Shown here: piece after piece, positions 40,341-54,914 of the stretch
Numbering within the stretch: the first letter of the stretch is position 1
How the letters are laid out: every line of letters begins with the position of its first letter
Source of the DNA: a virus
Direction: 5' to 3' (one strand)
Length of the DNA stretch: 64,000 bases
Virus record (IMG/VR): IMGVR_UViG_3300034107_000314
Location: 1-64,000 of that record
The notes under the pieces: generated by a model
What the model was told of the DNA's origin: nothing
Databases searched by the model: none
Seen by the model: only the letters and a program-made list of their open reading frames with translations
Program-made: the position numbers and the translations under genes

Positions 40341-41086
40341 AGTATCTCCTTTAATTTATCTAATGTTATTTTTGATTCCTTTTCAAACCCCAAATTTTGC
40401 AAAATACTTGCTACTGCATGAAAACTTGTTGACTTGGATAAAACTTCCTCTATCTTATCTTTCATATCTATCTTCTTATTTAATTCTTCAAGTATATTCG
40501 CGTTAAGATCTATTGGGCGACATCCACATAGAATAGAATTATATACATTATCACCACTTGCAAAACTTAACTTTGAAGAAGCGTAAATGTTCTTTCTGGT
40601 TGGTTCTGGAGCATATCCACAATATCTATTATGTTTGACAATTTGACTAGAATAGAATCTAGATATTACAGATTCTGGAACATTAACATTTTCAAGATTT
40701 TCCAGTGGAGTGTCTTCAATTGATACTAGATCAGCTTTATACTTATCTTGCTTTTCTCCCTTTAGATAAACAAATAAATCTGCATGTCCAGTATCCAATA
40801 TCCAATGGTATAAATCGCCAAAAGCGTCTTTAAACATTTTAAAGTTTGGATGTTCAGGAAAATTATCTTTTTGCAGGACACAAACTCTCATATCTGGACG
40901 TTCTTCAATATTCTTAATCACCGCTTTGGTTAAGAAATTTGCATCTGCTATATATAAATCTGGCTTTACAGTATAAAAAGTATCAAAGGTCGATACTGAA
41001 CCGGGATCATGTTTTGCAGCTTTAAATCCTGAATATAATAGGCATCTACCATATGATATCAAACTATTATCGACTAGTGTTTTCAT
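40337..41086 (-). CDS. Probable glycosyltransferase-like protein
   Basis: 249 residues. Mixed alpha/beta with DLYIADANFLTKAVIKNIEE, MRVCVLQKDNFPEHPNFKMF and SKLSFASGDNVYNSILCGCR. The last (ASGDNVYNSILCGCRPI) resembles the C-terminal donor-site loop of GT-B enzymes, where a Gly-rich turn and an N-x-x-L-C-G-C/A motif precede the sugar pocket. The N-terminal half is shorter than a full GT-B. It overlaps both neighbours. Assignment is by fold reading and context and is uncertain. Confidence 0.45.
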   Translation of the reverse strand: MKTLVDNSLISYGRCLLYSGFKAAKHDPGSVSTFDTFYTVKPDLYIADANFLTKAVIKNIEERPDMRVCVLQKDNFPEHPNFKMFKDAFGDLYHWILDTGHADLFVYLKGEKQDKYKADLVSIEDTPLENLENVNVPESVISRFYSSQIVKHNRYCGYAPEPTRKNIYASSKLSFASGDNVYNSILCGCRPIDLNANILEELNKKIDMKDKIEEVLSKSTSFHAVASILQNLGFEKESKITLDKLKEIL

Positions 41087-41780
41087 TATTAATATCCTTT
41101 AAGCTATCTATTTCTTTTATAAAACTATTACCAATATCAATGCATTTAAAGTTTCCATTATTTTCTATAATTTTATTAATTACTTCAAATGTCAACATAA
41201 ATTTGGGATTAAAATCATTTCTTAATATTAATTTTCTTAATATATTAACTTCTTGCTCTGCGAGAAATGCTATTTGACACCACTTTACAGGTAAACTATA
41301 AGATAGCACTGTTGCATTTCCATTTACTATCGTAACTCCAACTTCTTTATCATCAAACTGCTTCCCCTTATCAACCAATAAGAACGATTGATTGAGATTT
41401 ACATTTTTAAACAAATCTTCACTAATTACTAAGTCCCCATGTAAAAATAGTATATTGTCAAGCATTGAGTTGTTGACTGCTATTTTTAAACTTTCCCCAC
41501 TATTTGTATTTTCATAGGCTGGATTTTCAATAATGCGTGCTTGTTTATTGATTTTACGTATAATTTTATTTATATCAAATCCACAAACTATACTAATTTC
41601 ACACTTATTAAAAATCGCATTGATTATATCTATTTGATTGTCTAATATTGTTTTACCATTATATTTTAACAAGCATCTTGGCTCATAGGATCTTGTTCTA
41701 GAACCTAATCCAGCTGCCAATACAATCACTTGAATAGGAGGAAAGTTCTTATTTTTAATATTTCTTGTAAATCTACTCAT
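41067..41780 (-). CDS. Sugar-phosphate nucleotidyltransferase-like protein
   Basis: 237 residues. It opens with VIVLAAGLGSRTRSYEPRCL, the L-A-A-G-x-G-S/T-R signature loop of NTP_transferase enzymes (GlmU, RmlA, phosphocholine cytidylyltransferase type). This is followed by a LLKYNGKTILDNQIDII segment and an LFLHGDLVISEDLF strand carrying the second acidic site (GD). Enzymes of this type activate a sugar or alcohol phosphate with CTP, UTP or dTTP. In this operon it would supply the donor used by the transferases. It overlaps the next gene by 20 bases. Confidence 0.75.
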   Translation of the reverse strand: MSRFTRNIKNKNFPPIQVIVLAAGLGSRTRSYEPRCLLKYNGKTILDNQIDIINAIFNKCEISIVCGFDINKIIRKINKQARIIENPAYENTNSGESLKIAVNNSMLDNILFLHGDLVISEDLFKNVNLNQSFLLVDKGKQFDDKEVGVTIVNGNATVLSYSLPVKWCQIAFLAEQEVNILRKLILRNDFNPKFMLTFEVINKIIENNGNFKCIDIGNSFIKEIDSLKDINNENTSR

Positions 41781-42400
41781 GTTACAAAAAGCGCTTCTGG
41801 GATATACCTAACTAAAGCCTTGTTAAATGCATTACGAATAAGATCCATAGGTTCAACAATAAATGATTCCTTGTTTATAACTTCTTTACTAAAAGATATT
41901 TCTTTAATAGGAATAAAGTAATTAACTAGTTGATGTATAGTTGATAAATACTGATATTGTCCATTCGTAATATAATCAGAGTAGACAATTCCAGTCAACT
42001 TGTCTTCGAATTTTTTAAGCGTTTTCTCTACAAAATTTGACATATAAGTAGAACCAGAAGATAGTGTCATGTATATATCTGTTTGTGAGTACATTTTTTG
42101 TATTGCAAATACTTGTAAAGCTTTCACATCAAGAGTATCGACTGTTTTAATGTAAATATAGTTCACATTATTATGGCTTATCTTTTTGATACTATAGTCT
42201 TTAAACTGTTCATAAATAACTTGAGATTGACTGCAACAGCTATTAAAAAATACATTAATTATATCAGCAGAGCTTTCAGATATAGCACCGTTAGATATCA
42301 TACATATATTTGTTGGCTTTACAGTATTGTCAACTACACTCAACACAGACTTTAAAAAATCTTTACTGTCTTCAATTGGCAATATTACGGTTGATTTCAT
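41777..42400 (-). CDS. GT-A-type glycosyltransferase-like protein
   Basis: 207 residues. The start MKSTVILPIEDSKDFLKSVL and VVDNTVKPTNICMISNGAIS is the N-terminal strand-loop-helix of GT2-like enzymes (P-x-x-x, then S-V-x-x, then the ICMISNG-x strand). A TDIYMTLSSGSTYMSNFVEK stretch follows in the place of the usual DxD region, though here the acidic residues are less clear (TDIYM). The missing canonical DxD could mean an inactive or altered enzyme. It is coupled to the next gene by ATGA. Confidence 0.5.
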   Translation of the reverse strand: MKSTVILPIEDSKDFLKSVLSVVDNTVKPTNICMISNGAISESSADIINVFFNSCCSQSQVIYEQFKDYSIKKISHNNVNYIYIKTVDTLDVKALQVFAIQKMYSQTDIYMTLSSGSTYMSNFVEKTLKKFEDKLTGIVYSDYITNGQYQYLSTIHQLVNYFIPIKEISFSKEVINKESFIVEPMDLIRNAFNKALVRYIPEALFVT

Positions 42401-42926
42401 CTATTTCCTCCCAAGTTTTAATCATTGATGGTGACTGTTCTTTTATTTTTTCTTCATATGTCATATTTTTGACAATATCATTTTCTTCGTCAATCTCTAA
42501 TTTACTTCCTTTTAAATACTTGAAGATATAATTAAAATATGCCATACCATTAATAGAATCCGAATCATGTCTTATTAAAGCTACTGGGATATTAGATGTA
42601 GTTATTTTATTTATTTTTAAATAAAGATCTTCATTAAAATCTTCACCAACAATATTTACAACAGTCCATCCATTTTTGATATTATTAATGAATTGGTCTA
42701 ATATATAGATATCCGGTATTTTATTATAATTTAGTACAATATTATATTGGCATTCCAAGTATCTCATTTCATCAATAATATCGTCAGCAGACTCTTCTAG
42801 ATTATGACAAATACCAATCCAGTTTGGATTATGATGTAATACCTTAGATATATTATCTTTTAATTGTGATAAGTGAGATACATCTTTTAGTATAAAGATG
42901 TATCCTATTTTATTGTATATATTCAT
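42372..42926 (-). CDS. Glycan-operon protein, possible GT-A fragment
   Basis: 184 residues. IYNKIGYIFILKDVSHLSQL, then NWIGICHNLEESADDIIDEM and a YNIVLNYNKIPDIYILDQFI strand-helix series look like a small alpha/beta sugar-nucleotide fold. DSDSINGMAYFNYIFKYLKG has the style of a GT-A acceptor-side segment. No single catalytic motif is certain. Its start overlaps the previous gene by 4 bases; its end overlaps the next by 29. Best read as a divergent transferase or partner. Confidence 0.4.
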   Translation of the reverse strand: MNIYNKIGYIFILKDVSHLSQLKDNISKVLHHNPNWIGICHNLEESADDIIDEMRYLECQYNIVLNYNKIPDIYILDQFINNIKNGWTVVNIVGEDFNEDLYLKINKITTSNIPVALIRHDSDSINGMAYFNYIFKYLKGSKLEIDEENDIVKNMTYEEKIKEQSPSMIKTWEEIDEINRNIAN

Positions 42927-43342
42927 AGTACTTTCGTATACTCAAGTTTAAATTCTATATTACTAAGAACGACAGATTTTAATTGTATATACTGAAATTG
43001 GTTTAGAAAATCTTTTACTAATTCATTTGTAATAAAAGATTTAAACCCCTTGGCCTGTTCTGCCATTTGATTCAATTCTAATAAATTACCAGTTTTTCTA
43101 TATGCAAATACTAGTAGATCAAAATCAATATCGCTAATGATTAAACTTCCTTCAGGTCTAAGTTTCTTTACAATTAGAGAAAGAATATTTGGAATTTTGT
43201 TAATACTATACTGTCTCAACAATCCATCAAGTATAATTGAAGTACACTCAGAATCATCTGCAACATATTCCAACATTTCAACCTGTGATAAAACCTTAAA
43301 TGATTCGTCTTTAATAGACCTGTTTCCAAGATATACTTTCAT
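42923..43342 (-). CDS. Methyltransferase-like protein, short
   Basis: 139 residues. The segment SLIVKKLRPEGSLIISDIDF is the post-motif-III strand of Rossmann methyltransferases (L-R-P-G/E-G-x-L-I-I-S-D). The SAM-binding G-x-G loop of the N-terminal half is not recognisable: residues 1-40 (VYLGNRSIKDESFKVLSQVE) are short and altered. It may be a truncated or structural methyltransferase homologue, or the partner of a split enzyme. It is coupled on both sides by ATGA overlaps. Confidence 0.5.
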   Translation of the reverse strand: MKVYLGNRSIKDESFKVLSQVEMLEYVADDSECTSIILDGLLRQYSINKIPNILSLIVKKLRPEGSLIISDIDFDLLVFAYRKTGNLLELNQMAEQAKGFKSFITNELVKDFLNQFQYIQLKSVVLSNIEFKLEYTKVL

Positions 43343-44424
43343 ATAAATAAATCCTTAACTAAATTGCTATTTGTAAAATTAAACTTATCGACAGAACTAA
43401 TACATTTTTCTGAAATGTCTTGATATGAATCTTTGTTATTTAAAAATAACTCATATACTTCTCTCATTTTATTTTGTAAACCTAACACATCAATATTTAG
43501 CCAGTTGTCTTCAGATGTATATAAATCATCAAATGAATTATTTTCTGAATAACAAGGAGCTAGGTAAGAACGCACTGGATATCCATGAATATCATATTCT
43601 GAAATGCCAATTCCATCAGTATAAATAGGCACTACTCCCAATGCAGTTGCTTCGATGGCTGGATAGCACCAGCCTTCACCATGACTAGGAATTACAATTG
43701 CGTGACACTGCCTAAGAGTAGAGAAAACTATCTCTTCTGGTATCTGGTCAGCAATAACGATTTCTTTTTTAAATTTCTTATACTTTTTCATTTTGGACTT
43801 AACATTATCACAAAATTCTGTGACTTGTTTTATATTTCCAACAGTTTTTATATATAAATTTACTGGTTCTATATATTCAAATTCACTATGGAAAGCAATT
43901 AACAAGCTCTCTAAATTTTCTTTTTCATGTATAGATCCTATGAACACAAAATTAAATTTATTATTTAGCTCAGGTATACTTACTGTAGATTTTGTATCAA
44001 TAATTTTATTATAATTAAAACTATGGTTAAATACTTTTACCTTATCTGCATCAATTCCAGATCGTAATAGACATTCCTTGGATACCTCGCTAGGAACAAA
44101 AATTAAATCCATTAGTTTAATATTTTTAATCCATAGTGTATTCGTTAATTTTAACATATCAAGCTCTAATGCCGCTATGTTAATTGCCCCTCCGATATAT
44201 TTATAATCTTTGGGAAGGTAATGATGGACAACGTAATCAAAATCATCAGATGTTTTAGAAGTTAATTCCTTGATATCCTCTTCAAAATATGTATTTGCAT
44301 TGTTATATTTTATTTGAGTGCAATATACATCATGCCCAGCATTGTGCAGAGCTAATGCATTATATGTAGCGGCTTTTGCCCATTCAGTACCATCAGCAAA
44401 ATTTCCTATATATTTAATTTTCAT
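43339..44424 (-). CDS. Glycosyltransferase, GT4-like (GT-B fold)
   Basis: 361 residues. The C-terminal half carries HAIVIPSHGEGWCYPAIEAT and ALGVVPIYTDGIG, the E-G-x(6)-E acid pair and following Gly turn of GT4 donor binding. The N-terminal half begins KIKYIGNFADGTEWAKAATY, the acceptor-binding start of GT-B enzymes, and FNFVFIGSIHEKENLESLLI opens the second Rossmann fold. It probably transfers a sugar from a nucleotide donor to a glycan, protein or DNA acceptor. It is coupled by ATGA to the genes on each side. Confidence 0.85.
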   Translation of the reverse strand: MKIKYIGNFADGTEWAKAATYNALALHNAGHDVYCTQIKYNNANTYFEEDIKELTSKTSDDFDYVVHHYLPKDYKYIGGAINIAALELDMLKLTNTLWIKNIKLMDLIFVPSEVSKECLLRSGIDADKVKVFNHSFNYNKIIDTKSTVSIPELNNKFNFVFIGSIHEKENLESLLIAFHSEFEYIEPVNLYIKTVGNIKQVTEFCDNVKSKMKKYKKFKKEIVIADQIPEEIVFSTLRQCHAIVIPSHGEGWCYPAIEATALGVVPIYTDGIGISEYDIHGYPVRSYLAPCYSENNSFDDLYTSEDNWLNIDVLGLQNKMREVYELFLNNKDSYQDISEKCISSVDKFNFTNSNLVKDLFI

Positions 44425-46073
44425 TTAGCACCTAATTTCTGTAATCTAGCGTTTTCCCAGTCATTAAACATTGATCTCATATTTAAGCACATATGGAATG
44501 CTTTTTCAATATTAAATTCCTCATATCTTTTTTCCATGTCTGGATGAGAATAATCATTATAATAATATCCGGGAATAGTGGATGTTAAAGTTGCTCTATA
44601 AGTAAGATCCTTTACCATTCTTTTCCACATAGACTGATTAATCAATTCTGGCTTACCAAGTACATGAATAAATAGCCAGCTAATCTGATCTGATGTTGTC
44701 ATATTTGCTATATCACTTGGTAGTGATGTTTGAGGAGTAAATAATCTAGACCCAGATTCCCAAGTTTGAGATTTATCAAGCACCGGAGCGTTTAAGAAGT
44801 AATTAAGCCATTTATTTGCGGCATAATCCCAATTATAAATCTCTTTAGAATTTTCATAGCATTTCTTAGCTATGTAATTTCTCTTGGACTTATCTAAGCT
44901 TAAACTTTCAATAGTTGCTGCTAAAGCTTTATTGTCTGGTATAGCTCGGTTACATCCCGTCTCAAGTTCTTTATAAAGAGCCAGAGGTTTAATGCCAACC
45001 CCTTTAATGTTATTAATCAAAGATTCCATAGCAGAATATTCAATTGATATAACTGGCAAACCTGCGTATGCAGCTTCTAACTGAGGCATTCCCCAACCTT
45101 CACTATTCGCCCATTGAATATAGACATCAAATAGATTATATACTTTATTGAGTTCGTCTTCATTAATCTTGTTTGATATTCCAACTACTGCTGATGAAAA
45201 TGTATTGCATTTATAACAAAATGTTACAGAGTCATTAAAGAATAGTGGCTTGATATCACCACAGTTTTTACACTTGTAGGTCATCAAGACTTTATTTCCA
45301 AGTCCATTCTCTTTAATCAGCTCTGGGATATCCCAACCAACATCAGGATATGCAGTATGGCAATACAGATAGACATTCTTCATGTCAGGGTTGTTATCTA
45401 TAAAGATTTTGAAAGCTTTGAACAAATCGTTATAAAGTTTTCTTCGTTGATTTCTCATGACTGTGCCAAAGATAATGATATCTTCCTCAAGTCCGAAGCT
45501 ATTACGCAATTCTTTCTTATTTTTAATTGGAAAGAAACTATTGCTAGCGCATGGTGATGCTACGTCAATAAAGTTAATATTCTTTGATTGTTTGAGCATG
45601 GTATCTCTTCCAAACTCTGAATATGCGAATACACCATTTGCAGATGAGTAAGTATCGATCCAGCTTGATGCTTGAGGTTCGGCATCTACAGTTGGCATGA
45701 TAGCCCAATTAAAGAAATCTCTAAATGGAGACCTTTCCTCAAATTCAAGCATCCACCAATCTCTAATATCCATTACAAAGTCCGGCTGAAAATCTAGCAA
45801 GACATTATTAAATGAAAATTCTCCAAATTTATTAGCCATAGAAGCATTGTAGAAATTCATCGCCTCATGATTGTTTGCATCTGGGATATTTGCATAAAAT
45901 TTCCAAGGGATATCTTTAATTTCTTCTGCTTCTGGTCCTGAAAAGCATCCTAATTCAGCCACTTCAAGCTCTGGGTGTTTAGATAATCTTTTTAAGATTT
46001 CCTTGGTATATACAGAGTATCCAGTGGGGTGAAAAGACGCCTCAGTTACAAAAAGAACTTTTTTCTTTTTCAT
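44421..46073 (-). CDS. Glycosyltransferase, GT4-like, with zinc-ribbon insert
   Basis: 550 residues. The N-terminal KVLFVTEASFHPTGYSVYTK opens the first Rossmann domain. VSIQWANSEGWGMP-type sequence, read here as IQWANSEGWGMPQLEAAYAG (residues 320-338), is the GT4 E-x7-E donor motif with E325 and E333. Between the two halves of the second domain, four cysteines at about 268, 271, 286 and 289 form a zinc ribbon, which is unusual in GT4 enzymes. The last ~140 residues are an extra helical domain. It is the first gene of the glycan operon, 3 bases after SSB. Confidence 0.85.
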   Translation of the reverse strand: MKKKKVLFVTEASFHPTGYSVYTKEILKRLSKHPELEVAELGCFSGPEAEEIKDIPWKFYANIPDANNHEAMNFYNASMANKFGEFSFNNVLLDFQPDFVMDIRDWWMLEFEERSPFRDFFNWAIMPTVDAEPQASSWIDTYSSANGVFAYSEFGRDTMLKQSKNINFIDVASPCASNSFFPIKNKKELRNSFGLEEDIIIFGTVMRNQRRKLYNDLFKAFKIFIDNNPDMKNVYLYCHTAYPDVGWDIPELIKENGLGNKVLMTYKCKNCGDIKPLFFNDSVTFCYKCNTFSSAVVGISNKINEDELNKVYNLFDVYIQWANSEGWGMPQLEAAYAGLPVISIEYSAMESLINNIKGVGIKPLALYKELETGCNRAIPDNKALAATIESLSLDKSKRNYIAKKCYENSKEIYNWDYAANKWLNYFLNAPVLDKSQTWESGSRLFTPQTSLPSDIANMTTSDQISWLFIHVLGKPELINQSMWKRMVKDLTYRATLTSTIPGYYYNDYSHPDMEKRYEEFNIEKAFHMCLNMRSMFNDWENARLQKLGAK

Positions 46074-46076
46074 ATA

Positions 46077-46400
46077 TTATTCCGTTTTACATCCTGCTGA
46101 TTTGAAATTTTTGACTCTAAATACAATTTTTTGACGATTTTGATCATTAAAAACCCACTTATGCTGTCGGGCTTCAGATTCAATAATAAGCATATCACCT
46201 TTTTTGAAGTGTTTAGCAATGGTTGTAGCACCACTATCCCAAGCTTCAAAATCTAAAAAGTCCACCCTGCGATGCTTTTCCCCTTCTTTATCTTTTCTAT
46301 AGTCTTCAACAGCTAAACAAAAATTAACAACATAAGTATTATTAACTTCCCTTAGTTCTGGCTCATTAGCCAATTTTCCTACAAAACAACAATTATTCAT
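46077..46400 (-). CDS. ssb: Single-stranded DNA-binding protein
   Basis: 107 residues. The OB-fold pattern of bacterial SSB is clear: NNCCFVGKLANEPELREVNN, then VVNFCLAVEDYRKDKEGEKH, VDFLDFEAWDSGATTIAKHF and GDMLIIESEARQHKWVFNDQ. It is shorter than bacterial SSB and lacks the acidic C-terminal tail used for partner binding, ending at AGCKTE. It lies just downstream of the polymerase C-terminal gene, so it fits the replisome set. It covers ssDNA during phage replication and recombination. Confidence 0.9.
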   Translation of the reverse strand: MNNCCFVGKLANEPELREVNNTYVVNFCLAVEDYRKDKEGEKHRRVDFLDFEAWDSGATTIAKHFKKGDMLIIESEARQHKWVFNDQNRQKIVFRVKNFKSAGCKTE

Positions 46401-46409
46401 ATGTAATCC

Positions 46410-47999
46410 TTAAATTTGCATAACTCTTTTTACAACAAATGATTTATCCTTCTTTTCCTGTACTTCTCCATATAATAGTACCGTATTGCCTTCGAAAAGC
46501 AACTTCTTATATTGGGAAAATTCTTCAGAAAAAACCGTAATAGAATCTAATTCACCCGAACTATCTTCGGCAATTACAAATGCCATAAACTCGCCTTCGT
46601 GCTGACCTCTTTTTAGTTTATATTCTCTAACTTGATTTACTTTAACTGCTAATTTGGCATCTTGCATTTTCTTTACTTCGCCATTAGCAATCTCTTTACA
46701 TGTGATATTTACATCATCTAAAGCAAGATTATCTGACTGCGAACAAGTTAAAGAACAACCCATAAGTTTCTGTTCAATATCTGCAATCCACACATAATCG
46801 TCTTCAAGTGAATAAGGAGGATTTTGCAGAGCTTGGTAGATATCTAGTACAGAAGTGATCCTACGGGAATTAATCTTATCATTATTATTAATCATTCTAT
46901 TAACTAATTCAATGAATGGAGCGTTAGCCATGTTTGTGCTTTTCCAATGATCTATGATCCACCCTTGCTCTTTGATAGTTAGCTTATTCCAAATATCAAA
47001 TTCAAAGATCATTCTATTTCTATTAAGCTTATTATTCTTACCTATTAATCCACCTACACTAATAATAGAAATGAATGCATTCTTCTTTATCTCATTGCCA
47101 ATAAGGAACAAGCATTCTAACCAATTGAAGTCTTTGATAGGTTTTCTTGCAATACCTTCCGCTTCTTTGACAACCTTGGCTAATGTTTCCTGTTCACCCT
47201 CTCCAACATTCTTAACATCGCTATATCCAAAGTATATGACATTCCTATCTCTATCCATTGTAAAGCGACGATAGAAGAAGTCAAGTCTAGGGGGCAGAAC
47301 TTCAATTCCTTGTAGTTTCGCATCCATAATCAACTCTTTAATCTCTCGCTGCTTATCTGGCTTACTAGATGCATTGTTTAGATACACTGTATAAAATTTA
47401 ATTGGATCATGAGTTTTACAATATGCAGAAGCAAAAGAGTTAATAGCGTATGCCACAGCGTGAGATTTATTAAATGAATAGCGAGCAGATGCTGCAATCC
47501 ATTCAAAAATCTTAGCTGCTGATACGTCATCTACTAATCCTTTAGCTTTTGCTCCATTGATAAACTTCTCTTCAACTTCTTTCATAAGTGCCGCATCTTT
47601 TTTACCCATAGCTTTACGTAGTGAGTCAGCCTCTTCAGGTGTAAAGCCAGCAATCTCTGTAGCAATACGCATAGCTTGTTCTTGATATACGATAATTCCA
47701 TAAGTTTTACCCAGCACTGTTTCCAGTGCCGGGTGTAAATATTTGGTCTCGTCAATCTTAGCCTTGCGATCTGTATAGTGCTTGGTCATGGATTTGCCGT
47801 CTAATTCGGCCTCTAGCGTGCCGGGGCGAATAATGGATACCAAGTCAGCTAATTCGTCAATAGAGCGAGGTTGCGCCCTTTTTGCCCAACTGGAACCCAG
47901 TCTGGACTCCAATTGAAAAACACCCTTAGTTCTCCCGCTGCAAATCAGATCCCAAGTCGCTTCGTCGTCAAAATTTTTGATATCTTCAATATGAACCAT
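46410..47999 (-). CDS. dnaE: DNA polymerase III alpha subunit, C-terminal half (fingers to OB)
   Basis: 529 residues from ATG 47999, which has AAAGGG 7 bases upstream; ATG 48017 is an alternative. The protein begins where C-family polymerases enter the fingers: TKGVFQLESRLGSSWAKRAQ, then RPGTLEAELDGKS, YGIIVYQEQAMRIA, LRKAMGKKDAALMKE and SFNKSHAVAYAINSF. A helix-hairpin-helix (VKNVGEGEQETLAKVV) and an OB-fold end (EFMAFVIAEDSSGELDSITV) follow. The palm is supplied by the gene at 49118-50620. It starts without extra sequence and no intein motif is present, so this is a true split gene. Confidence 0.92.
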   Translation of the reverse strand: MVHIEDIKNFDDEATWDLICSGRTKGVFQLESRLGSSWAKRAQPRSIDELADLVSIIRPGTLEAELDGKSMTKHYTDRKAKIDETKYLHPALETVLGKTYGIIVYQEQAMRIATEIAGFTPEEADSLRKAMGKKDAALMKEVEEKFINGAKAKGLVDDVSAAKIFEWIAASARYSFNKSHAVAYAINSFASAYCKTHDPIKFYTVYLNNASSKPDKQREIKELIMDAKLQGIEVLPPRLDFFYRRFTMDRDRNVIYFGYSDVKNVGEGEQETLAKVVKEAEGIARKPIKDFNWLECLFLIGNEIKKNAFISIISVGGLIGKNNKLNRNRMIFEFDIWNKLTIKEQGWIIDHWKSTNMANAPFIELVNRMINNNDKINSRRITSVLDIYQALQNPPYSLEDDYVWIADIEQKLMGCSLTCSQSDNLALDDVNITCKEIANGEVKKMQDAKLAVKVNQVREYKLKRGQHEGEFMAFVIAEDSSGELDSITVFSEEFSQYKKLLFEGNTVLLYGEVQEKKDKSFVVKRVMQI

Positions 48000-48201
48000 T
48001 GAATGCCCTTTCGACATAATTCTTATACGCTTCTTCCAGCAATTTTATTAACTCATGATCATCATCAGTTATATATTCAGTCTGAGTATAGTCATCATAA
48101 TAATCCTCAGAATACCAGTCACCATCTGCATCTCGCTTATAATAACCATTATCTGTTTTAACATAGAAAAAGACTTCTCTGCTAACTGATATTATTTTCA
48201 T
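47986..48201 (-). CDS. Small acidic protein between polymerase halves, unknown
   Basis: 71 residues. Tyr/Asp/Glu-rich with a DGDWYSEDYYDDYTQTEYIT core and a helical HELIKLLEEAYKNYVERAF end. Its start (48201) overlaps the exonuclease stop by 4 bases and its end overlaps the polymerase C-terminal gene by 14. No family. Small acidic proteins beside polymerases can be modulators or DNA mimics, but nothing in the sequence fixes this. Confidence 0.55.
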   Translation of the reverse strand: MKIISVSREVFFYVKTDNGYYKRDADGDWYSEDYYDDYTQTEYITDDDHELIKLLEEAYKNYVERAFNGSY

Positions 48202-48905
48202 AATGTAATATCCATAGGGGCATTTGCAAATGACTTCTCAAAGTTAGTCTTAGAATTTAACTTGCGTTGATACTTCATAAATCTGACAAAGATATTTGCA
48301 GTGTCAACAACATCATAGATAGCGTTGTGGGCATTTGCTTTACTCTCTTCGGGGAATCCAAAGAACTCTCTCAGGTATCCCATGTTTAATTTCTTAACTG
48401 CATCATTATCTTCAAACCATCCAAACAATACATCCATCATGTCTACTTTATAAATTTGATGAACGAGCTTTTGCTTTCCGGTTTTTTCTTCAGATGGCCC
48501 ATACATTTGACAATACCTATTTAAGATTGGCATATCATAGTTATTGATATTAAATCCTACAGGAATAGGTGCAAAGTATGGAGATCCTTTCATATTAAAC
48601 TTAGTTACAAAATTAGAGAACTGCTGCCAAGCAACTTTAGGCCCAACAGCTTTTTCTAATTGTTCGCGAGTCTTGCGAGTTACGTCAAGAGCTTCTTGTT
48701 CAACAGGATCGAACCCTGCTTTAATAGCTTTCTCATCATCAAACTCAGGTCGTACTTCAATGTCAAATACTCCACCCGGCTGAAGTGTTAGCTTCTTACC
48801 ATGCAATACTACTGCTGAGATTTGAGTCAATTGACACTTGTTTGGATTCTTGCCTGTGGTTTCAAAGTCAAAAATCAAAAAATCACGATTGCTGTTTAGT
48901 GACAT
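48198..48905 (-). CDS. DnaQ-like 3'-5' exonuclease (DEDDh)
   Basis: 235 residues. FLIFDFETTGKNPNKCQLTQ gives the Exo I motif (D-x-E-T-T-G), PVGFNINNYDMPILNRYCQM gives Exo II (N-x(3)-Y/F-D), and ANAHNAIYDVVDTANIFVRF gives Exo III (H-x4-D). These are the DEDDh proofreading residues. Placed between the two halves of the polymerase, it is the likely proofreading subunit. This would replace the PHP-domain proofreading, whose metal-binding residues are missing here. It could also be RNase T-like. Its start overlaps the previous gene by 23 bases. Confidence 0.88.
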   Translation of the reverse strand: MSLNSNRDFLIFDFETTGKNPNKCQLTQISAVVLHGKKLTLQPGGVFDIEVRPEFDDEKAIKAGFDPVEQEALDVTRKTREQLEKAVGPKVAWQQFSNFVTKFNMKGSPYFAPIPVGFNINNYDMPILNRYCQMYGPSEEKTGKQKLVHQIYKVDMMDVLFGWFEDNDAVKKLNMGYLREFFGFPEESKANAHNAIYDVVDTANIFVRFMKYQRKLNSKTNFEKSFANAPMDITL

Positions 48906-49116
48906 AGTTCTCTCTCAATTCTAAAAATTTATCAATAGCTTCGTTTAGGTCGTAAAATATTTGTGAGAATTTATTATTATGGACTTGATATATTCCATTC
49001 TTCTTCTCTCTGTACCAAGGAACATGATTTCTTAGATCGGATAAGCTCAAATCTTTAAAGTCAATGTCATTACCATCCCTGATAACAGTTGCGTAGTCTA
49101 GAAATTTTTCCTTCAT
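48883..49116 (-). CDS. Small protein between polymerase halves, unknown
   Basis: 77 residues. KEKFLDYATVIRDGNDIDFK, then SDLRNHVPWYREKKNGIYQV and a helical DLNEAIDKFLELRENY end. No recognised domain. It follows the polymerase N-terminal gene by one base and overlaps the exonuclease start by 23. Because it is in the middle of the split polymerase operon it may bind one of the replisome subunits, but that is only inference. Confidence 0.5.
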   Translation of the reverse strand: MKEKFLDYATVIRDGNDIDFKDLSLSDLRNHVPWYREKKNGIYQVHNNKFSQIFYDLNEAIDKFLELRENYVTKQQS

Positions 49117-49117
49117 G

Positions 49118-50620
49118 TTAGTCCTTGTCTGTAATCTGCATAATTTTATCTAGTAAGTTAATCCCAAGCACATCAAATTTAGTCAGTCCAACTTTATCCA
49201 AGTCATGCATTTCAAATGCCACTAATCTATGACCATTCTTATCTGTAATAAGAGGCGCATCATTAATTAGATCTTCATTAGAAATAATTACTCCTGCCGG
49301 ATGTTTTCCTTGAGATTTATAAGTTCCTTCTATTCTTATAGCAAGAGAGAAAAGATCTGACAACTCTCCAGATAAATTACCCCCCTTGTCGATTCTACAC
49401 CACTTCTCAAGTCTCTTTGGATCATTTTCAAGAGTCCACCGAATCACTGATTTGATATCCATTTCTTCCAACTCATCCGAAATGCTAGCTTCTTGTGGCA
49501 AACTTTCAGTGATCTCGTTTAGCTCACTAAAAGATAAGTCCCCATAAACTCTAGCAACATCTTTAACTGCTGATCGACCTTGTAAACGTCCAAATGTAAT
49601 CATCTGATAAACTCTCTCATTGCCATACTTGTTCTTAATATAGTCAATGATTTCATCGCGGTGAACAGATGGAACGTCCATATCAATATCCGGCAAAGAA
49701 ATATTGTCTTTTGTAAATCGACCAGCATTTAAAAATCTAGAGAATAGTAAGTCATATTTCATAGGATCAATATCAATGATTCCAAGTAAATATGACACTA
49801 GACATCCACCAGCACTTCCACGGCCCGGACCCGGCAACCACTTATTGTTTCTTACATATTGAATAATGTCTTGCACAATAAGAAAGTATCCAGACAGTTC
49901 AAATCCATGAATAACAGATAGTTCATACTTAATACGATCAGTATATTCTTTCTTCCTATCGCCTTTTAAATGCATAAGTTTTGCTCGCCATCCATCCCTA
50001 CACAATTGTGTTAAGTAGTCATTTTCAGACATATCTCCACAATCTACGCGAGGTAGCTTGGGCTTAGAAAGAATGCTATACTGTTGCAATTCGGAATATA
50101 ACTGTTTAGTTCCAAAGTATTGCTTTTGACTAGGTATAATCCTATGAGGTGGATGAAAGAAATAATGATCAGACTCAAAGAACTTTTTATATTCTCCCAT
50201 GTCTACATCTTTAGCTTTCTTAAGTGTAGTTTTAAAGTTAAGACATAATACCATTCTATGAAGAATTGCGTCATTCTGTTCAGCATAATAAACTGGCATA
50301 ACTGCTAGTTCATCTTCTGTATAAAATTGTAAGTCTTCTTTATCGTATTCTATCTTTTCTTTAGAAGCTAGCTTAATTAAAGCCCTATACCCTTTTAAGG
50401 ATTTAGCGATGTAATATCCACCGTTCTCTTTCATTCCAAGGATTGGAACAATCCCCGCTTTATTCATGGCATTGAAGAAATCAACAACACCACTAATAGT
50501 TTCAATATCAGCAATTAAGCAATGAGTATAACCTAATTCTTTGCATTTCTTGGCAGCTTCATCTGGTTTGATGAAACCTTTCAATAATGAATAGTGTGTT
50601 GTTATAACTGGCAATATCAT
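49118..50620 (-). CDS. dnaE: DNA polymerase III alpha subunit, N-terminal half (PHP and palm)
   Basis: 500 residues. PHP-like domain (about 1-190) then the palm. Motif G-P-G-R-G-S-A-G-G is at 264-272, the catalytic pair PDIDMD at 310-315 (D311, D313), and the third catalytic Asp is D483 in LTKFDVLG. The gene stops 17 residues later, right where the fingers begin in one-piece enzymes. The first PHP strand reads VITTHYSLLKG instead of the HxH-containing HVHSEYSLLDG type, and ADIET replaces TDHGN, so PHP metal ligands are lost. The remaining half is encoded at 46410-47999. Confidence 0.93.
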   Translation of the reverse strand: MILPVITTHYSLLKGFIKPDEAAKKCKELGYTHCLIADIETISGVVDFFNAMNKAGIVPILGMKENGGYYIAKSLKGYRALIKLASKEKIEYDKEDLQFYTEDELAVMPVYYAEQNDAILHRMVLCLNFKTTLKKAKDVDMGEYKKFFESDHYFFHPPHRIIPSQKQYFGTKQLYSELQQYSILSKPKLPRVDCGDMSENDYLTQLCRDGWRAKLMHLKGDRKKEYTDRIKYELSVIHGFELSGYFLIVQDIIQYVRNNKWLPGPGRGSAGGCLVSYLLGIIDIDPMKYDLLFSRFLNAGRFTKDNISLPDIDMDVPSVHRDEIIDYIKNKYGNERVYQMITFGRLQGRSAVKDVARVYGDLSFSELNEITESLPQEASISDELEEMDIKSVIRWTLENDPKRLEKWCRIDKGGNLSGELSDLFSLAIRIEGTYKSQGKHPAGVIISNEDLINDAPLITDKNGHRLVAFEMHDLDKVGLTKFDVLGINLLDKIMQITDKD

Positions 50621-51648
50621 TCAACAGCTCCCGGATCTTTATAAGTTCCAATCACAAATCCCGGTCTAGTACATGTTTCGACCGTTTTTTGCATTCCAAT
50701 AGTTTTGATTTGATCTTCGACATGATGACACATAGTTCGTTCAGTTCCCGGCCAGTTTGTCTTATAGTAATGACATAGCTTTTGACATTTAAAACTTTTT
50801 CGATCTTGTGATATGGGTTTAGGATTTTGATTTGCTCTGATCTCTTCAAACATTGTTTTCAGAGTATTACTAAGAAAATACTCGTCATCATCTTTATCAA
50901 AAGCAAGCGTAAATGGTCCACCATCCCTACAGAAAAAGATAGTCATTAATGTATATCTATACTTGGGATAGAGTTTGCCAACGGCATAGTGATAAAGAAG
51001 TAGCTGGGTATCCTTCATCAGCTTGTCATAGTCCTTACGCTCTCCAGTCGCCCAATCAAGCCTCTGGCCAGTCTTCCAGTCGATTACTTCTATTGTACCA
51101 TCTTCCATCTCAGTTACAAGATCTATTGTCCCTTTTATCGCAAGATTTCCAGAAATTGGCCCATCTGGGCCATCAAAAGTGAATTTTGCCCAAGGCTCAT
51201 TGATTGGAATGTCAAAGTGAGGTTCAGTATCAATTACTTTTCTATTTCGTGGATCAAATTGACCCTTATTATACGACAATGTATCCCAAACCATTTTTTC
51301 ACAAAATTTATAATCTTTATCATCAAATGAATTATGTGTTGAGTTTTCTCTGTAAAATTGAAAACTTCTATTTAAGACTGAATAAACAAAAGCATCGCTA
51401 TGTAAATCTTTTTCAGTAAAAGAAAAATCACCCAAAGGTTCTTGAGTGATTTTCATGGTTGATCTTTTATTGAACTGAGTCCTTTTTTTACATATTGCTA
51501 ATGTTTCAAGCACTGCGTGAGTTATAGTTCCCAGATCTGCTTTTTTTCCTGATGGAGAATAATGACCCAGCACGTATGTCATAAAATATTGCAGTTCACA
51601 ATATTTCCAGTTGTTAAGACTGGAAGATCTAAAATAAGTAGTAATCAT
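50617..51648 (-). CDS. RecB/Cas4-family PD-(D/E)XK nuclease
   Basis: 343 residues. The nuclease core is visible: SGNLAIKGTIDLVTEMEDGT with the Asp, then EVIDWKTGQRL with the D-x-K pair of the PD-(D/E)XK fold. A Cys near the N-terminus (NWKYCELQY) and three near the C-terminus (FKCQKLCHY and TMCHHV) are arranged as in Cas4/AddB enzymes holding an Fe-S cluster. Such phage nucleases take part in recombination and DNA end processing. It overlaps both neighbours by ATGA. Confidence 0.85.
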   Translation of the reverse strand: MITTYFRSSSLNNWKYCELQYFMTYVLGHYSPSGKKADLGTITHAVLETLAICKKRTQFNKRSTMKITQEPLGDFSFTEKDLHSDAFVYSVLNRSFQFYRENSTHNSFDDKDYKFCEKMVWDTLSYNKGQFDPRNRKVIDTEPHFDIPINEPWAKFTFDGPDGPISGNLAIKGTIDLVTEMEDGTIEVIDWKTGQRLDWATGERKDYDKLMKDTQLLLYHYAVGKLYPKYRYTLMTIFFCRDGGPFTLAFDKDDDEYFLSNTLKTMFEEIRANQNPKPISQDRKSFKCQKLCHYYKTNWPGTERTMCHHVEDQIKTIGMQKTVETCTRPGFVIGTYKDPGAVE

Positions 51649-52460
51649 TTGATTGATGTTACTGCTTGTCTTTTATATACCTGCTCTGGTGGATTTAATA
51701 CTACGTCTTTAGACAACCATTTCCACTCATCTAAAACTTTAAGTAACTCTTGACAAGATTCTTCAATAGACATGTTTGCATTATCTAAGACGTAATCAAA
51801 CCCATTATAATTATCTAACGCTGATTCACTTACATGAGAGTCTTCATTGTGGAATCTTGTTAATCTAATAATTTTTCCTCCGGCTTTTTTAACTGCCTCT
51901 ACTTCATTTTCAAATCTAGCATCAGAAATAATAGCGAAGTTCGATTGTTCTGCTAAAATATCTTTAATTGCTCGATCTGTCCATACATCTGGATATATTT
52001 TTCTACAAATATCTGTGCCAAAATATTGGATAAATTCTCTAGCGGTCATTTCTCCTGTCTTGCCTTTAATTTTTGTAGGCATGTCTTCCCATTTATATTT
52101 AATAGGTGTATTTTTTTGTTGATCTGTTCCATACAATAATTCTTTGTCAATATTAAACAATGAAATTGCAATTTCTTTTAATGTAGTTGCAAAAGCGTAA
52201 TGCTTAACAAAAGGCCATACATTATCTATTGCCCAGATCGCAAAATCCATATCTACTCTGGTAATATCAATAATTCCTTGTCCGCTTTGTGTTTTACCAG
52301 ATGTATCGGTTACTAATGTTTCAATAACTAGTTCCCCTTGATCAGTAATTTCAAAAGCATCGATAATACCATATGATTTTAATTGATATCCATGTAAAAA
52401 ATTACAAAGAGTATTTTTGCCTGATTGTTTTTTTCCAGAAAATGCTAATATTTGACCCAT
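51645..52460 (-). CDS. Deoxynucleoside monophosphate kinase (T4 gp1-like)
   Basis: 271 residues. P-loop ILAFSGKKQSGKNTLCNFLH at the start, FIQYFGTDICRKIYPDVWTD in the middle, and FAIISDARFENEVEAVKKAG then GKIIRLTR near the end match the T4 gp1 dNMP kinase family, which phosphorylates dNMPs for DNA synthesis. It begins at the ATG that follows the primase gene with one base overlap. With dUTPase and ribonucleotide reductase it forms the phage nucleotide supply set. Confidence 0.85.
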   Translation of the reverse strand: MGQILAFSGKKQSGKNTLCNFLHGYQLKSYGIIDAFEITDQGELVIETLVTDTSGKTQSGQGIIDITRVDMDFAIWAIDNVWPFVKHYAFATTLKEIAISLFNIDKELLYGTDQQKNTPIKYKWEDMPTKIKGKTGEMTAREFIQYFGTDICRKIYPDVWTDRAIKDILAEQSNFAIISDARFENEVEAVKKAGGKIIRLTRFHNEDSHVSESALDNYNGFDYVLDNANMSIEESCQELLKVLDEWKWLSKDVVLNPPEQVYKRQAVTSIK

Positions 52461-53596
52461 TAAAAAAGCCCCTTAATTTGTGGTTTGAGTTCGTAATTGA
52501 TATCTTCAATAGACATGTCTCCAATATCCTTCTTTGATATTTTAGGTGTGAAATAATTAAATCTTCTACCACCTTTTTGGATAATGCCTTGTGCTGCCTT
52601 TTGTCCTGCCTCATCATTGTCTGTTAATATAACAATATTCATTACTCCAAGCTCTTCAAGATTAATTAATTGATCTTCACTAAGATCAGATCCAAATATG
52701 CCAGCGCAATTTTTAATACCTGATTCGTATAATCTCCAAACATCGCCTTGACCTTCAACTAATACAATTGTTAATAACTTTTGGATGTGTGGTTTAGTAA
52801 CCGATAGTCCATACAAAAAGAAAGATTTTTTAAAGCCTTTGCTGTTGAACCATTTTGGCTTAGTATGTTCGTCGGTTGCCCTTCCGACACATCCCACATA
52901 CTGAGAATTTTCATCATACACAGGAACGACTGCTCGATTGAACATTTGTCTATTAGAATTATAACACTCTCCAACATCAAAAGCTATCAAAGTTTCTGGT
53001 AAAAAACCTCTACTTATATAGTATTTTGATGGAATGTCAAGTGTTGCAATAACTTGCTCCCGTGATATGTTTAAGTTTAATTTTTCAGATTTACGAGTTA
53101 ATATTTCATTAATCTTATTAATCTCATAAATGCTTTCACTTATCTTTTCTTCTGGTATATCTATGATCTTTTTATTTAAGAATGAAAGTGAAAAATTTAA
53201 AGCTTTATAAAAATTAACTTCTTTACCTTCTCTTTGAGAAAGAACACCTCTCACAAAACCTATCATATTTTTACCATAGTCTTTTTCACAAGAATGCGTC
53301 CAACAAACCCAATTACCTTTAGTCTTAGAACCATCAGTAAAGATGCACGACCCTTCGCAGTTATCTCCTCCATGAACTGGACAAGGAAAGGCTATTCTAT
53401 TTGGAAATTCAGTATATTCAATCTTTAAAGCATTTAGTAATTCTGGAACTTTATCCGATAGCTCATTACATATCGAATAGATCTTCTCCCGACTCACTTT
53501 CTCGTATTTCAAAGGAATTGTCTTGACTTGCATTCGCGGCTCCATTTTTAAGTTCATCTCTTGTATACCATTCAGTAAGTTTAGCAATCGAGCCAT
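52460..53596 (-). CDS. DNA primase, DnaG type
   Basis: 378 residues if it starts at 53596, which overlaps the helicase by 131 bases; starts at 53533 or GTG 53497 would give less overlap. Zinc-binding residues are in PCPVHGGDNCEGSCIF and GNWVCWTHSCEKDYGK. A TOPRIM fold is in TIVLVEGQGDVWRLYESG and NIVILTDNDEAGQKAAQG, with the E and D-x-D metal residues. It makes RNA primers with the DnaB-type helicase whose gene precedes it. The C-terminal helicase-binding domain of bacterial DnaG is not apparent, as in many phages. Confidence 0.88.
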   Translation of the reverse strand: MARLLNLLNGIQEMNLKMEPRMQVKTIPLKYEKVSREKIYSICNELSDKVPELLNALKIEYTEFPNRIAFPCPVHGGDNCEGSCIFTDGSKTKGNWVCWTHSCEKDYGKNMIGFVRGVLSQREGKEVNFYKALNFSLSFLNKKIIDIPEEKISESIYEINKINEILTRKSEKLNLNISREQVIATLDIPSKYYISRGFLPETLIAFDVGECYNSNRQMFNRAVVPVYDENSQYVGCVGRATDEHTKPKWFNSKGFKKSFFLYGLSVTKPHIQKLLTIVLVEGQGDVWRLYESGIKNCAGIFGSDLSEDQLINLEELGVMNIVILTDNDEAGQKAAQGIIQKGGRRFNYFTPKISKKDIGDMSIEDINYELKPQIKGLF

Positions 53597-54914
53597 TCAT
53601 TTTAACATTAATATAATTGCCATACTCAAGTCCAGATCCATGTCTAGCTTTGATAATAACAAGTTTACGATTTCCATTCTCATCACCGTCATCTGCCACT
53701 TCTTCGTCGCTTTTCATTTGAAACTTAGCAACTGTAGACGCAAGCCATTGAAGTCTATCAGATTGTGCGATTTCCTCTTCTCGATTAAGCTGCACAAAAG
53801 ATAAACATGGTAGGTCGTATTTAATACAGAAGTCATTCATCTTTGTAATCTGAAAGCCTAAAGCTTGGTATTCTTGCATGGCAGCGGTTAGTCCAGCTGA
53901 ACTCATCAACTTGAAATAATCGTATATGATTAAGCAATCTTTAGTTCTTCCATTCTCATCAAATCCAACATATTGATGCACCCATCTTTTAATAATGTTA
54001 AGGATGTTATCAAACGGTTGACCTGCGATTGATATATAGTGATACGGTATCTTTTCAATCAACTTGGCTGCGGCAATCACCTTTTCTTTTGAGTTAAAAC
54101 TCTTAGCAAAAGCCCCTTTCGCAATCTCGTTAATCTTAATTCCGCTAATATTTGCTAACATACGGTTTCTTTGATCGCCAAGATCCATTTCTGTATCTAA
54201 ATATAGAACTGGGATATTATAAACTTCCGAAACATACTTTGCCACATTAGTAGAGATCACACTTTTACCAACACCAGTTCTAGCTCCGATTAGAGTGACT
54301 GACTTTCTTCTAAGGCCACCTCCTATCGCTTCATCAAATCTAGGAAAGCCTGTAGGAATACCAAGATAATCAGAAGGATTGTTAATAAGGTAATCTACAT
54401 AAGAATCAATATCTTCGCCAAGAAGTACAGTCTTATTGTTTTGTTCTTTATATGCAAGTGAAGTGATCTCCATGATTGGAGTTTCAACCATGCCAATGAT
54501 ATCTTCTACGCTCTCATCGCCTGTAACTTTAGTCATTGACTTATCACAGACAGATAGCGTCTTTTTAATATCTCTAGCTAATTTAAGTTTAGTTAACTTA
54601 GCAGCAAATTTAGGAATGTTATCTTTATTGATAGGGAAGTTAAAAAGCGACCGGATGAAACTCATTTCAGTCGCTTTATTGATTAATTCATACACGCCTA
54701 ACTTTTGAGCTGTTGAGAATATAGAGAGGTATTCAATATTCTGGTTATTGTTGATAACATCTTGCAAGCATGTAAATATAACCTGATTTAATTCGTGGCT
54801 AAAGTATTCTGCTTGCAAGAAGTCAAGCTCAACATAAACTTCCAGTCCGAACTGACAGATGCCAGCTAAGACGGCACGTTCAACTGGTAAATTCTGTAAT
54901 TCGGACTGGCTCAT
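53466..54914 (-). CDS. Replicative DNA helicase, DnaB type
   Basis: 482 residues. The N-terminal domain (NLPVERAVLAGICQFGLEVY) precedes the RecA-fold. Walker A is LIGARTGVGKSVISTNVAKY, Walker B and the H4 region follow (VLYLDTEMD, then DCLIIYDYFKLMSSAG), and VIIKARHGSGLEYGNYINV holds the arginine-finger/sensor region. It unwinds DNA ahead of the split polymerase. The stop lies inside the primase frame. It begins 1 base after the next upstream gene, in the same operon. Confidence 0.93.
   Translation of the reverse strand: MSQSELQNLPVERAVLAGICQFGLEVYVELDFLQAEYFSHELNQVIFTCLQDVINNNQNIEYLSIFSTAQKLGVYELINKATEMSFIRSLFNFPINKDNIPKFAAKLTKLKLARDIKKTLSVCDKSMTKVTGDESVEDIIGMVETPIMEITSLAYKEQNNKTVLLGEDIDSYVDYLINNPSDYLGIPTGFPRFDEAIGGGLRRKSVTLIGARTGVGKSVISTNVAKYVSEVYNIPVLYLDTEMDLGDQRNRMLANISGIKINEIAKGAFAKSFNSKEKVIAAAKLIEKIPYHYISIAGQPFDNILNIIKRWVHQYVGFDENGRTKDCLIIYDYFKLMSSAGLTAAMQEYQALGFQITKMNDFCIKYDLPCLSFVQLNREEEIAQSDRLQWLASTVAKFQMKSDEEVADDGDENGNRKLVIIKARHGSGLEYGNYINVKMNGSIAKLTEWYTRDELKNGAANASQDNSFEIRESESGEDLFDM

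What the first reader, a model, noticed from the sequence alone, without database searches (positions are those of the whole stretch)
46410..50620. Replicative C-family polymerase split between two genes with a proofreading exonuclease between the halves
Seen directly: the N-terminal gene contains PHP-like domain and palm with all three catalytic Asp (D311, D313, D483) and stops 17 residues after the third. The C-terminal gene begins at the finger domain and continues to the OB fold. Nothing obvious is missing at the joint, and the intervening 1.1 kb holds an exonuclease and two small genes. There is no intein or intron motif. Established: one-piece DnaE enzymes run through this point. Inferred: the parts assemble in trans as a multi-subunit replicase, the break separating palm from fingers.
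Basis: partly seen in the sequence, partly recalled or inferred. Interest (0 to 1): 0.8.

Follow-up and report, generated by a model that had tools for sequence, protein, structure and literature searches.

The report
Phage replicase split into two genes
A large lineage of uncultured, mostly aquatic phages carries its only DNA-copying enzyme as two separate genes, cut exactly between the catalytic 'palm' and the 'fingers', with the proofreading enzyme's gene in between; since nothing seems to glue the halves together, this looks like a natural two-piece version of a bacterial-type polymerase.

Summary
In a 155-kb tailed-phage record, a bacterial-type (C-family, DnaE-like) polymerase is encoded in two genes: polN (degenerate PHP + palm + thumb; D311/D313/D483) and polC (fingers to OB fold). 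Between them lie a small gene, a DEDDh exonuclease and a second small gene. The halves tile without gap or overlap against a one-piece relative. It is not an error, intron or intein: at least 141 distinct viral loci (down to about 40% identity) have the same break and the order polN-Exo-polC, with 0-28 aa beyond the conserved end of polN. Real split inteins occur in the same family, but elsewhere in the gene. The window and 12 relatives of 131-244 kb hold one palm gene, one fingers gene and no PolA or PolB; 76 of 76 classifiable cellular homologues are one-piece. A one-piece form (Exo moved upstream, at least 5 contigs) nests inside the split clade, a secondary fusion showing that the halves work together. 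Best explanation: palm and fingers assemble non-covalently as the phage replicase, with Exo as proofreader. Assembly and activity are inferred. Closest precedent: a different, minimal split Pol III in jumbo phages. New variant of a known kind.

The parts
49118..50620 (-). polN: N-terminal half of a DnaE-type polymerase (degenerate PHP, palm, thumb), 500 aa, catalytic D311/D313/D483
   Evidence: Pfam PF02811 and PF07733; AF2 pLDDT 91, pTM 0.88; Foldseek to Pol III alpha E 2e-32; D311/D313/D483 invariant in 43 relatives
48883..49116 (-). S1: 77-aa small gene between polN and exo; similar 60-91 aa genes sit at this place in many relatives; function unknown
   Evidence: dN/dS 0.06-0.12
48198..48905 (-). 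exo: DEDDh (DnaQ/RNase_T-like) 3'-5' exonuclease, presumed proofreading subunit
   Evidence: PF00929 E 3e-10 and phrog_192 'DNA polymerase exonuclease subunit' E 1e-24; D13, E15, D124, H193, D198 invariant in A3; dN/dS 0.013
47986..48201 (-). S2: 71-aa small gene, not generally conserved (absent in the 96%-identical relatives; a 75-aa ORF at the same place in L021)
46410..48017 (-). polC: C-terminal half (fingers, following helical region, OB fold); probable true start 47999 (Met7)
   Evidence: PF17657 E 3.5e-46; AF2 pLDDT 92, pTM 0.87; Foldseek to Pol III alpha E 2e-21; start site from relatives
46077..46400 (-). SSB, directly downstream, same replication gene cluster
   Evidence: PF00436 E 4e-18
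50617..51648 (-). PD-(D/E)XK (Cas4/RecB-like) nuclease, directly upstream
   Evidence: PF12705 E 4e-19
51645..52460 (-). deoxynucleoside monophosphate kinase
   Evidence: PF21448 E 3e-15
52460..53596 (-). DnaG-type primase (Toprim)
   Evidence: PF13662 and phrog_47
53466..54914 (-). DnaB-type replicative helicase
   Evidence: PF03796 E 6e-18, phrog_19

Best explanation
The phage's replicative polymerase is a C-family (DnaE-type) enzyme whose polypeptide has been permanently divided in the linker between palm and fingers. polN supplies the metal-binding aspartates, thumb and a vestigial PHP; polC supplies the fingers, the following helical region and the OB fold. Both are made, with a DEDDh exonuclease, from one gene cluster (helicase, primase, dNMP kinase, nuclease, polN, S1, exo, S2, polC, SSB), and dock non-covalently through the surfaces that palm and fingers already share in one-piece DnaE, giving a working replicase with Exo as proofreader. 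Shown: gene structure, domain content, catalytic residues, purifying selection, conservation of the break, absence of a joining element and of another PolA, PolB or DnaE in the record, and a nested secondary fusion. Inferred: physical assembly, polymerase activity, the role of Exo, and use of a host clamp.
For: Same break and polN-Exo-polC order in 155 non-redundant viral loci; 141 distinct polN ends all stop at profile position 496-499, all with Exo between. Exactly one palm and one fingers gene and no PolA or PolB in the window's record and in 12 relatives of 131-244 kb. Catalytic Asp invariant. dN/dS: polN 0.042, polC 0.044, exo 0.013. polN and polC distances correlate, r = 0.90 over 94 taxa. 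One-piece forms L225 and L376-L381 nest inside the split clade (supports 100/98, 99/96, 100/99, 97/99; split group monophyletic in 0% of 200 bootstrap trees). Both halves fold confidently alone and match Pol III alpha. No intron; no intein in polN or polC by Pfam. The break-to-break gap varies from 666 to 5,718 nt, which excludes frameshifting or hopping.
Against: No biochemical or structural evidence of association, and no complex was modelled. Association could need Exo, S1 or a host factor. Records may be incomplete, so a second polymerase cannot be fully excluded. The loci came from queries of the split lineage, so they do not give the frequency among all viral DnaE.
Confidence: 0.85

Rival explanations
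1. The halves are joined after synthesis by a split intein, or at RNA level by an intron, so the enzyme is one chain ('fractured gene').
For: Inteins are common in this family: split inteins at palm GPGRG|S (L381, L228) and fingers YxFNK|SH (L106, L120, L229, L231), some with freestanding endonuclease ORFs, and contiguous ones at RPG|C (L236, L260). The gap between polN and polC often hosts homing-type endonuclease genes.
Against: At the polN|polC break only 0-28 aa follow the conserved end of polN in 141 distinct loci; no room for an intein N-fragment of about 90-120 aa. No intein family in polN or polC; Rfam finds no intron. The 'intron' would hold a conserved exonuclease gene. The break lies in a variable linker, not in a conserved motif like the true intein sites.
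Confidence: 0.04
2. polN-polC is not the replicase but an accessory or repair polymerase; the host enzyme copies the genome.
For: In jumbo-phage group 2.2 a split minimal Pol III co-occurs with PolB and was suggested to serve one strand or repair (PMC7824862). No beta-clamp family match in the record.
Against: No other polymerase was found in this record or 12 large relatives; the genes lie in a helicase-primase-SSB cluster; a dedicated DEDDh exonuclease argues for high fidelity.
Confidence: 0.12
3. The split is an assembly or sequencing error, or a decaying pseudogene.
For: Only raw sequence was seen at first; one relative's contig (L011/L040) does end in a chimeric join.
Against: Same structure in at least 141 distinct loci from many metagenomes; dN/dS about 0.04; catalytic residues invariant.
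Confidence: 0.01
4. Exo (or S1) is the physical bridge: polN and polC alone bind weakly and the obligate unit is a PolN-Exo-PolC heterotrimer. (A refinement of the best explanation, not exclusive of it.)
For: Exo lies between the halves in 155 loci; in E. coli the epsilon subunit binds the alpha PHP domain (established knowledge; alpha-epsilon chimera structures 4gx8/4gx9 appear).
Against: Gene position may only reflect co-expression; the PHP, the usual docking site, is degenerate in the window. In L225, with fused halves, Exo is simply moved upstream.
Confidence: 0.3

Closest known systems
One-piece DnaE / Pol III alpha (E. coli 2HNH, Thermus aquaticus 2HPI/3E0D; phage DnaE of Pbunavirus, mycobacteriophages, Moorella phage MTATph1)
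   Same: Same domain order and catalytic triad; both halves align end to end
   Different: One chain; 76 of 76 classifiable cellular homologues are one-piece. In Pbunavirus PB1 the exonuclease sits upstream of a one-piece gene
Split minimal Pol III alpha of jumbo-phage group 2.2 (Iyer et al. 2021, PMC7824862)
   Same: C-family polymerase in two separate proteins without an intein
   Different: Minimal core only, genes far apart, accompanied by a PolB; here full PHP-to-OB architecture, neighbouring genes with Exo between, no PolB
Cyanobacterial split DnaE with trans-splicing split intein (as cited in PMC3919608)
   Same: dnaE in two genes
   Different: There an intein ligates the halves; here no intein, and the break lies between palm and fingers
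Phage 'fractured genes' with split inteins and freestanding endonucleases (Dassa et al. 2009, paper not held; MIJ3 PolB, PMC6892783)
   Same: Replication gene interrupted by another gene
   Different: Intervening gene is a conserved exonuclease; no intein halves. True examples exist in relatives at other sites (L106, L120, L228, L229, L231, L381)
Rossellomorea phage phiT1 gp20/gp18 (PV767480, L054)
   Same: Break at the same palm-fingers boundary
   Different: Falls outside the clade, no exonuclease between, 49-aa ORF instead: apparently independent
Cbastvirus phiST/Larrie, Bacillus phage Jayan, Lysinibacillus phage LC76P1
   Same: dnaE-type gene in two ORFs
   Different: Break just before the palm DxD motif; LC76P1 has an endonuclease-like ORF between (looks intron-like; not tested)

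Membership tests
C-family DNA polymerase (DnaE/Pol III alpha) | Pol-beta-like palm with three catalytic Asp | tested here: met
   PF07733 E 4e-73; D311, D313, D483 invariant in 43 rows
C-family DNA polymerase (DnaE/Pol III alpha) | Fingers domain and C-terminal OB fold | tested here: met
   PF17657 E 3.5e-46, OB weak by Pfam; AF2 model matches full Pol III alpha chains
C-family DNA polymerase (DnaE/Pol III alpha) | Single polypeptide (usual, not strictly defining) | tested here: not met
   Two genes with Exo between, in at least 141 distinct loci
C-family DNA polymerase (DnaE/Pol III alpha) | Polymerase activity | not testable with these tools
   Needs purified proteins
Split-intein (fractured) gene | Intein N- and C-fragments flanking the break | tested here: not met
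   polN tail 0-28 aa in 141 loci; no intein Pfam hit; positive control L381 detected
Intron-interrupted gene | Group I or II intron at the break | tested here: not met
   No Rfam intron in 45800-51000 at E up to 1
Jumbo-phage split minimal Pol III (PMC7824862) | Minimal core without other Pol III domains, accompanied by PolB | tested here: not met
   PHP and OB present; no PolB
DEDDh proofreading exonuclease (DnaQ-like) | ExoI DxE, ExoII D, ExoIII H...D motifs | tested here: met
   Invariant D13, E15, D124, H193, D198 in A3; PF00929

The most novel reading that the evidence does not exclude
An obligate PolN-Exo-PolC holoenzyme in which a C-family active site is assembled from two chains in every infection, with the proofreading exonuclease as the assembly core; inherited over a whole lineage of uncultured aquatic phages and undone once by natural re-fusion.
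Probability: 0.35. Interest if true: 0.78.

Novelty: new variant of a known kind. Interest (0 to 1): 0.64.

Why it matters
Bacterial replicases are textbook single-chain alpha subunits. A stable, widespread natural break between palm and fingers says that covalent continuity through the active-site cleft is dispensable, gives ready-made split polymerases for engineering (for example conditional or ligand-gated ones), and offers a natural split-to-fused comparison for testing what the break changes. It also shows how annotation pipelines can miss or misname replicases in uncultured phages.

Tried and rejected
Sequencing or assembly error: rejected. Full-length dnaE elsewhere: none; the one-piece piece in L011/L040 is at a contig end, fused in mid-gene to a glycosyltransferase ORF, a chimeric join. 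Intron: none by Rfam. Split intein at the break: rejected. Frameshift or hopping: excluded by gaps of 0.7-5.7 kb. Isolated phage with the same arrangement: none found; best INPHARED hits are under about 37% identity, and a distant family member's Exo (L236) finds nothing. Three papers sought on viral replicases and fractured genes are not held. PHROGs did not name the structural genes tried, so the phage could not be classified beyond a terminase match. Clamp-binding motifs were not tested systematically.

Full report
OBSERVATION. The window is part of a 155,259-base virus record with a terminase match, so a tailed phage. On the minus strand the replication cluster runs DnaB helicase, DnaG primase, dNMP kinase, PD-(D/E)XK nuclease, polN, S1 (77 aa), exonuclease, S2 (71 aa), polC, SSB. 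polN carries PHP and Pol III palm; polC carries the fingers and, weakly, an OB fold. Profile alignment to solved Pol III alpha places the end of polN at about E. coli 565-573 and the start of polC at about 579-589, in the palm-fingers linker. polC probably starts at 47999 rather than 48017.

IS IT REAL? Close relatives (96% protein identity) give dN/dS of 0.042 (polN), 0.044 (polC) and 0.013 (exo). Searches of IMG/VR seeded with polN, polC and Exo gave 157 non-redundant split rows including two isolated phages used for comparison; 155 have Exo between the halves, always in the order polN-Exo-polC. Among 141 distinct polN ends, every one stops at profile position 496-499, with 0-28 further residues. 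The gap between halves is 666-5,718 nt (median 932). S1-like small genes recur there, and homing-type endonucleases, glycosyltransferases and other genes are found inserted. As a control, the same classification of 80 loci from cellular genome assemblies gave 76 one-piece, one cut by its contig end and three split; the three are the nearest to the window (a 152-kb contig in a SAR202 MAG, two Flavobacteriales MAG contigs), each with Exo between. The SAR202 assembly has its own one-piece dnaE on another contig.

SOLE POLYMERASE. The window's record has one palm match, one fingers match and no PolA, PolB or beta-clamp family match. In 12 further split records of 131-244 kb the count is the same: one palm, one fingers, no PolB, no PolA, no beta clamp. 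Completeness is not certified.

NOT JOINED. Rfam shows no intron. polN and polC have no intein family match. The family itself supplies positive controls: split inteins at palm GPGRG|S (L381, L228) and fingers YxFNK|SH (L106, L120, L229, L231), and contiguous HNH-like inteins at RPG|C (L236, L260). These sit in conserved motifs and carry about 100 aa of intein on the N side; the polN|polC break has neither feature.

SECONDARY FUSION. L225 and its relatives L376-L381 have a one-piece gene of about 1,139 aa with Exo directly upstream (L381 also bears a split intein in the palm). In a careful tree with one-piece outgroups this lineage nests four starred forks deep within the split clade (100/98, 99/96, 100/99, 97/99), and the split group is monophyletic in none of 200 bootstrap trees; an earlier 60-row tree agrees. 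The simplest reading is one ancient split and one re-fusion; the alternative needs several independent splits with the same break and the same gene order. The linker in the fused form is as long as the two ends in the window together. polN and polC distances correlate at r = 0.90 over 94 taxa (permutation maximum 0.11), though shared ancestry alone also gives correlation (polC-Exo r = 0.87).

STRUCTURE. AlphaFold2 with 43-row alignments gives pLDDT 91 / pTM 0.88 for polN and 92 / 0.87 for polC, confident almost to the break (polC residues 1-8, before or at the probable start, are disordered). Foldseek returns Pol III alpha chains as the best matches for both. So each half is a complete folding unit. 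The complex was not modelled.

PHP. polN of about 620-660 aa keeps the HxH motif, while polN of about 500-550 aa, including the window, has lost it and is about 110 aa shorter. The exonuclease keeps all DEDDh residues, so proofreading is most likely its task (inference).

MECHANISM. Most likely palm and fingers dock through their native interface to form the replicase, with Exo as proofreading subunit (0.85 for non-covalent assembly as the working polymerase). Whether Exo is the bridge is open (0.3).

KNOWN OR NEW. Split Pol III alpha in phages has one published precedent found here: a minimal, dispersed form alongside PolB in jumbo phages (PMC7824862). Cyanobacterial dnaE is split by an intein (PMC3919608). 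Several isolated phages in GenBank have dnaE in two ORFs with other break points, and phiT1 has the same break independently. No isolated phage record has a close relative, and no paper describing this arrangement was found (subscription papers are missing). I therefore rate it a new variant of a known kind, of good interest because it makes the need for covalent continuity in a C-family replicase directly testable.

Noticed in passing
L381:1427-5980; L228:4291-6580: Split intein interrupting the palm at GxGRG|S; in L381 with a freestanding endonuclease-like ORF between (Pfam Intein_splicing on the N fragment).
   Followed up: partly
L106:3497-6440; L120:9859-12757; L229:7596-10537; L231:7602-10534: Split inteins in polC at YxFNK|SH, close to the recalled cyanobacterial DnaE site, so the polymerase is in three genes; L106 and L120 have an endonuclease-like ORF between. 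New candidate split inteins.
   Followed up: partly
L236:7717-10200; L260:7678-10098: Contiguous inteins with HNH-like core at RPG|C in the fingers.
   Followed up: no
window 48883-49116: S1, a conserved 60-91 aa gene between polN and exo, function unknown; could be a small replicase subunit.
   Followed up: partly
window 49118-50620: PHP domain decays in one subclade (HxH lost, about 110 aa shorter) while the DEDDh exonuclease stays intact.
   Followed up: partly
L011:12012-12735: Contig end is chimeric: glycosyltransferase ORF joined in frame to a one-piece dnaE resembling Pelagibacter's.
   Followed up: yes
L054:3140-6422: Rossellomorea phage phiT1 dnaE split at the same palm-fingers boundary, apparently independently, with a 49-aa ORF between.
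   Followed up: partly
L048:2873-6473; L055:4248-7831: Cbastvirus phages phiST and Larrie have dnaE in two adjacent genes split just before the palm DxD motif; the N-terminal gene ends in an extra tail.
   Followed up: no
L003:7773-8570; L021:7712-8542: Related 265-276 aa Cys-rich, homing-endonuclease-like ORFs inserted between S1 and exo (no Pfam hit).
   Followed up: no
L296 (VFHP01000007.1, 152,655 bases): Split replicase on a phage-sized contig binned in a SAR202 MAG; possible host link.
   Followed up: partly
window 41067-46073: Run of glycosyltransferase- and nucleotidyltransferase-like genes directly downstream of the replication cluster; the first two are conserved in order in relatives.
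   Followed up: no
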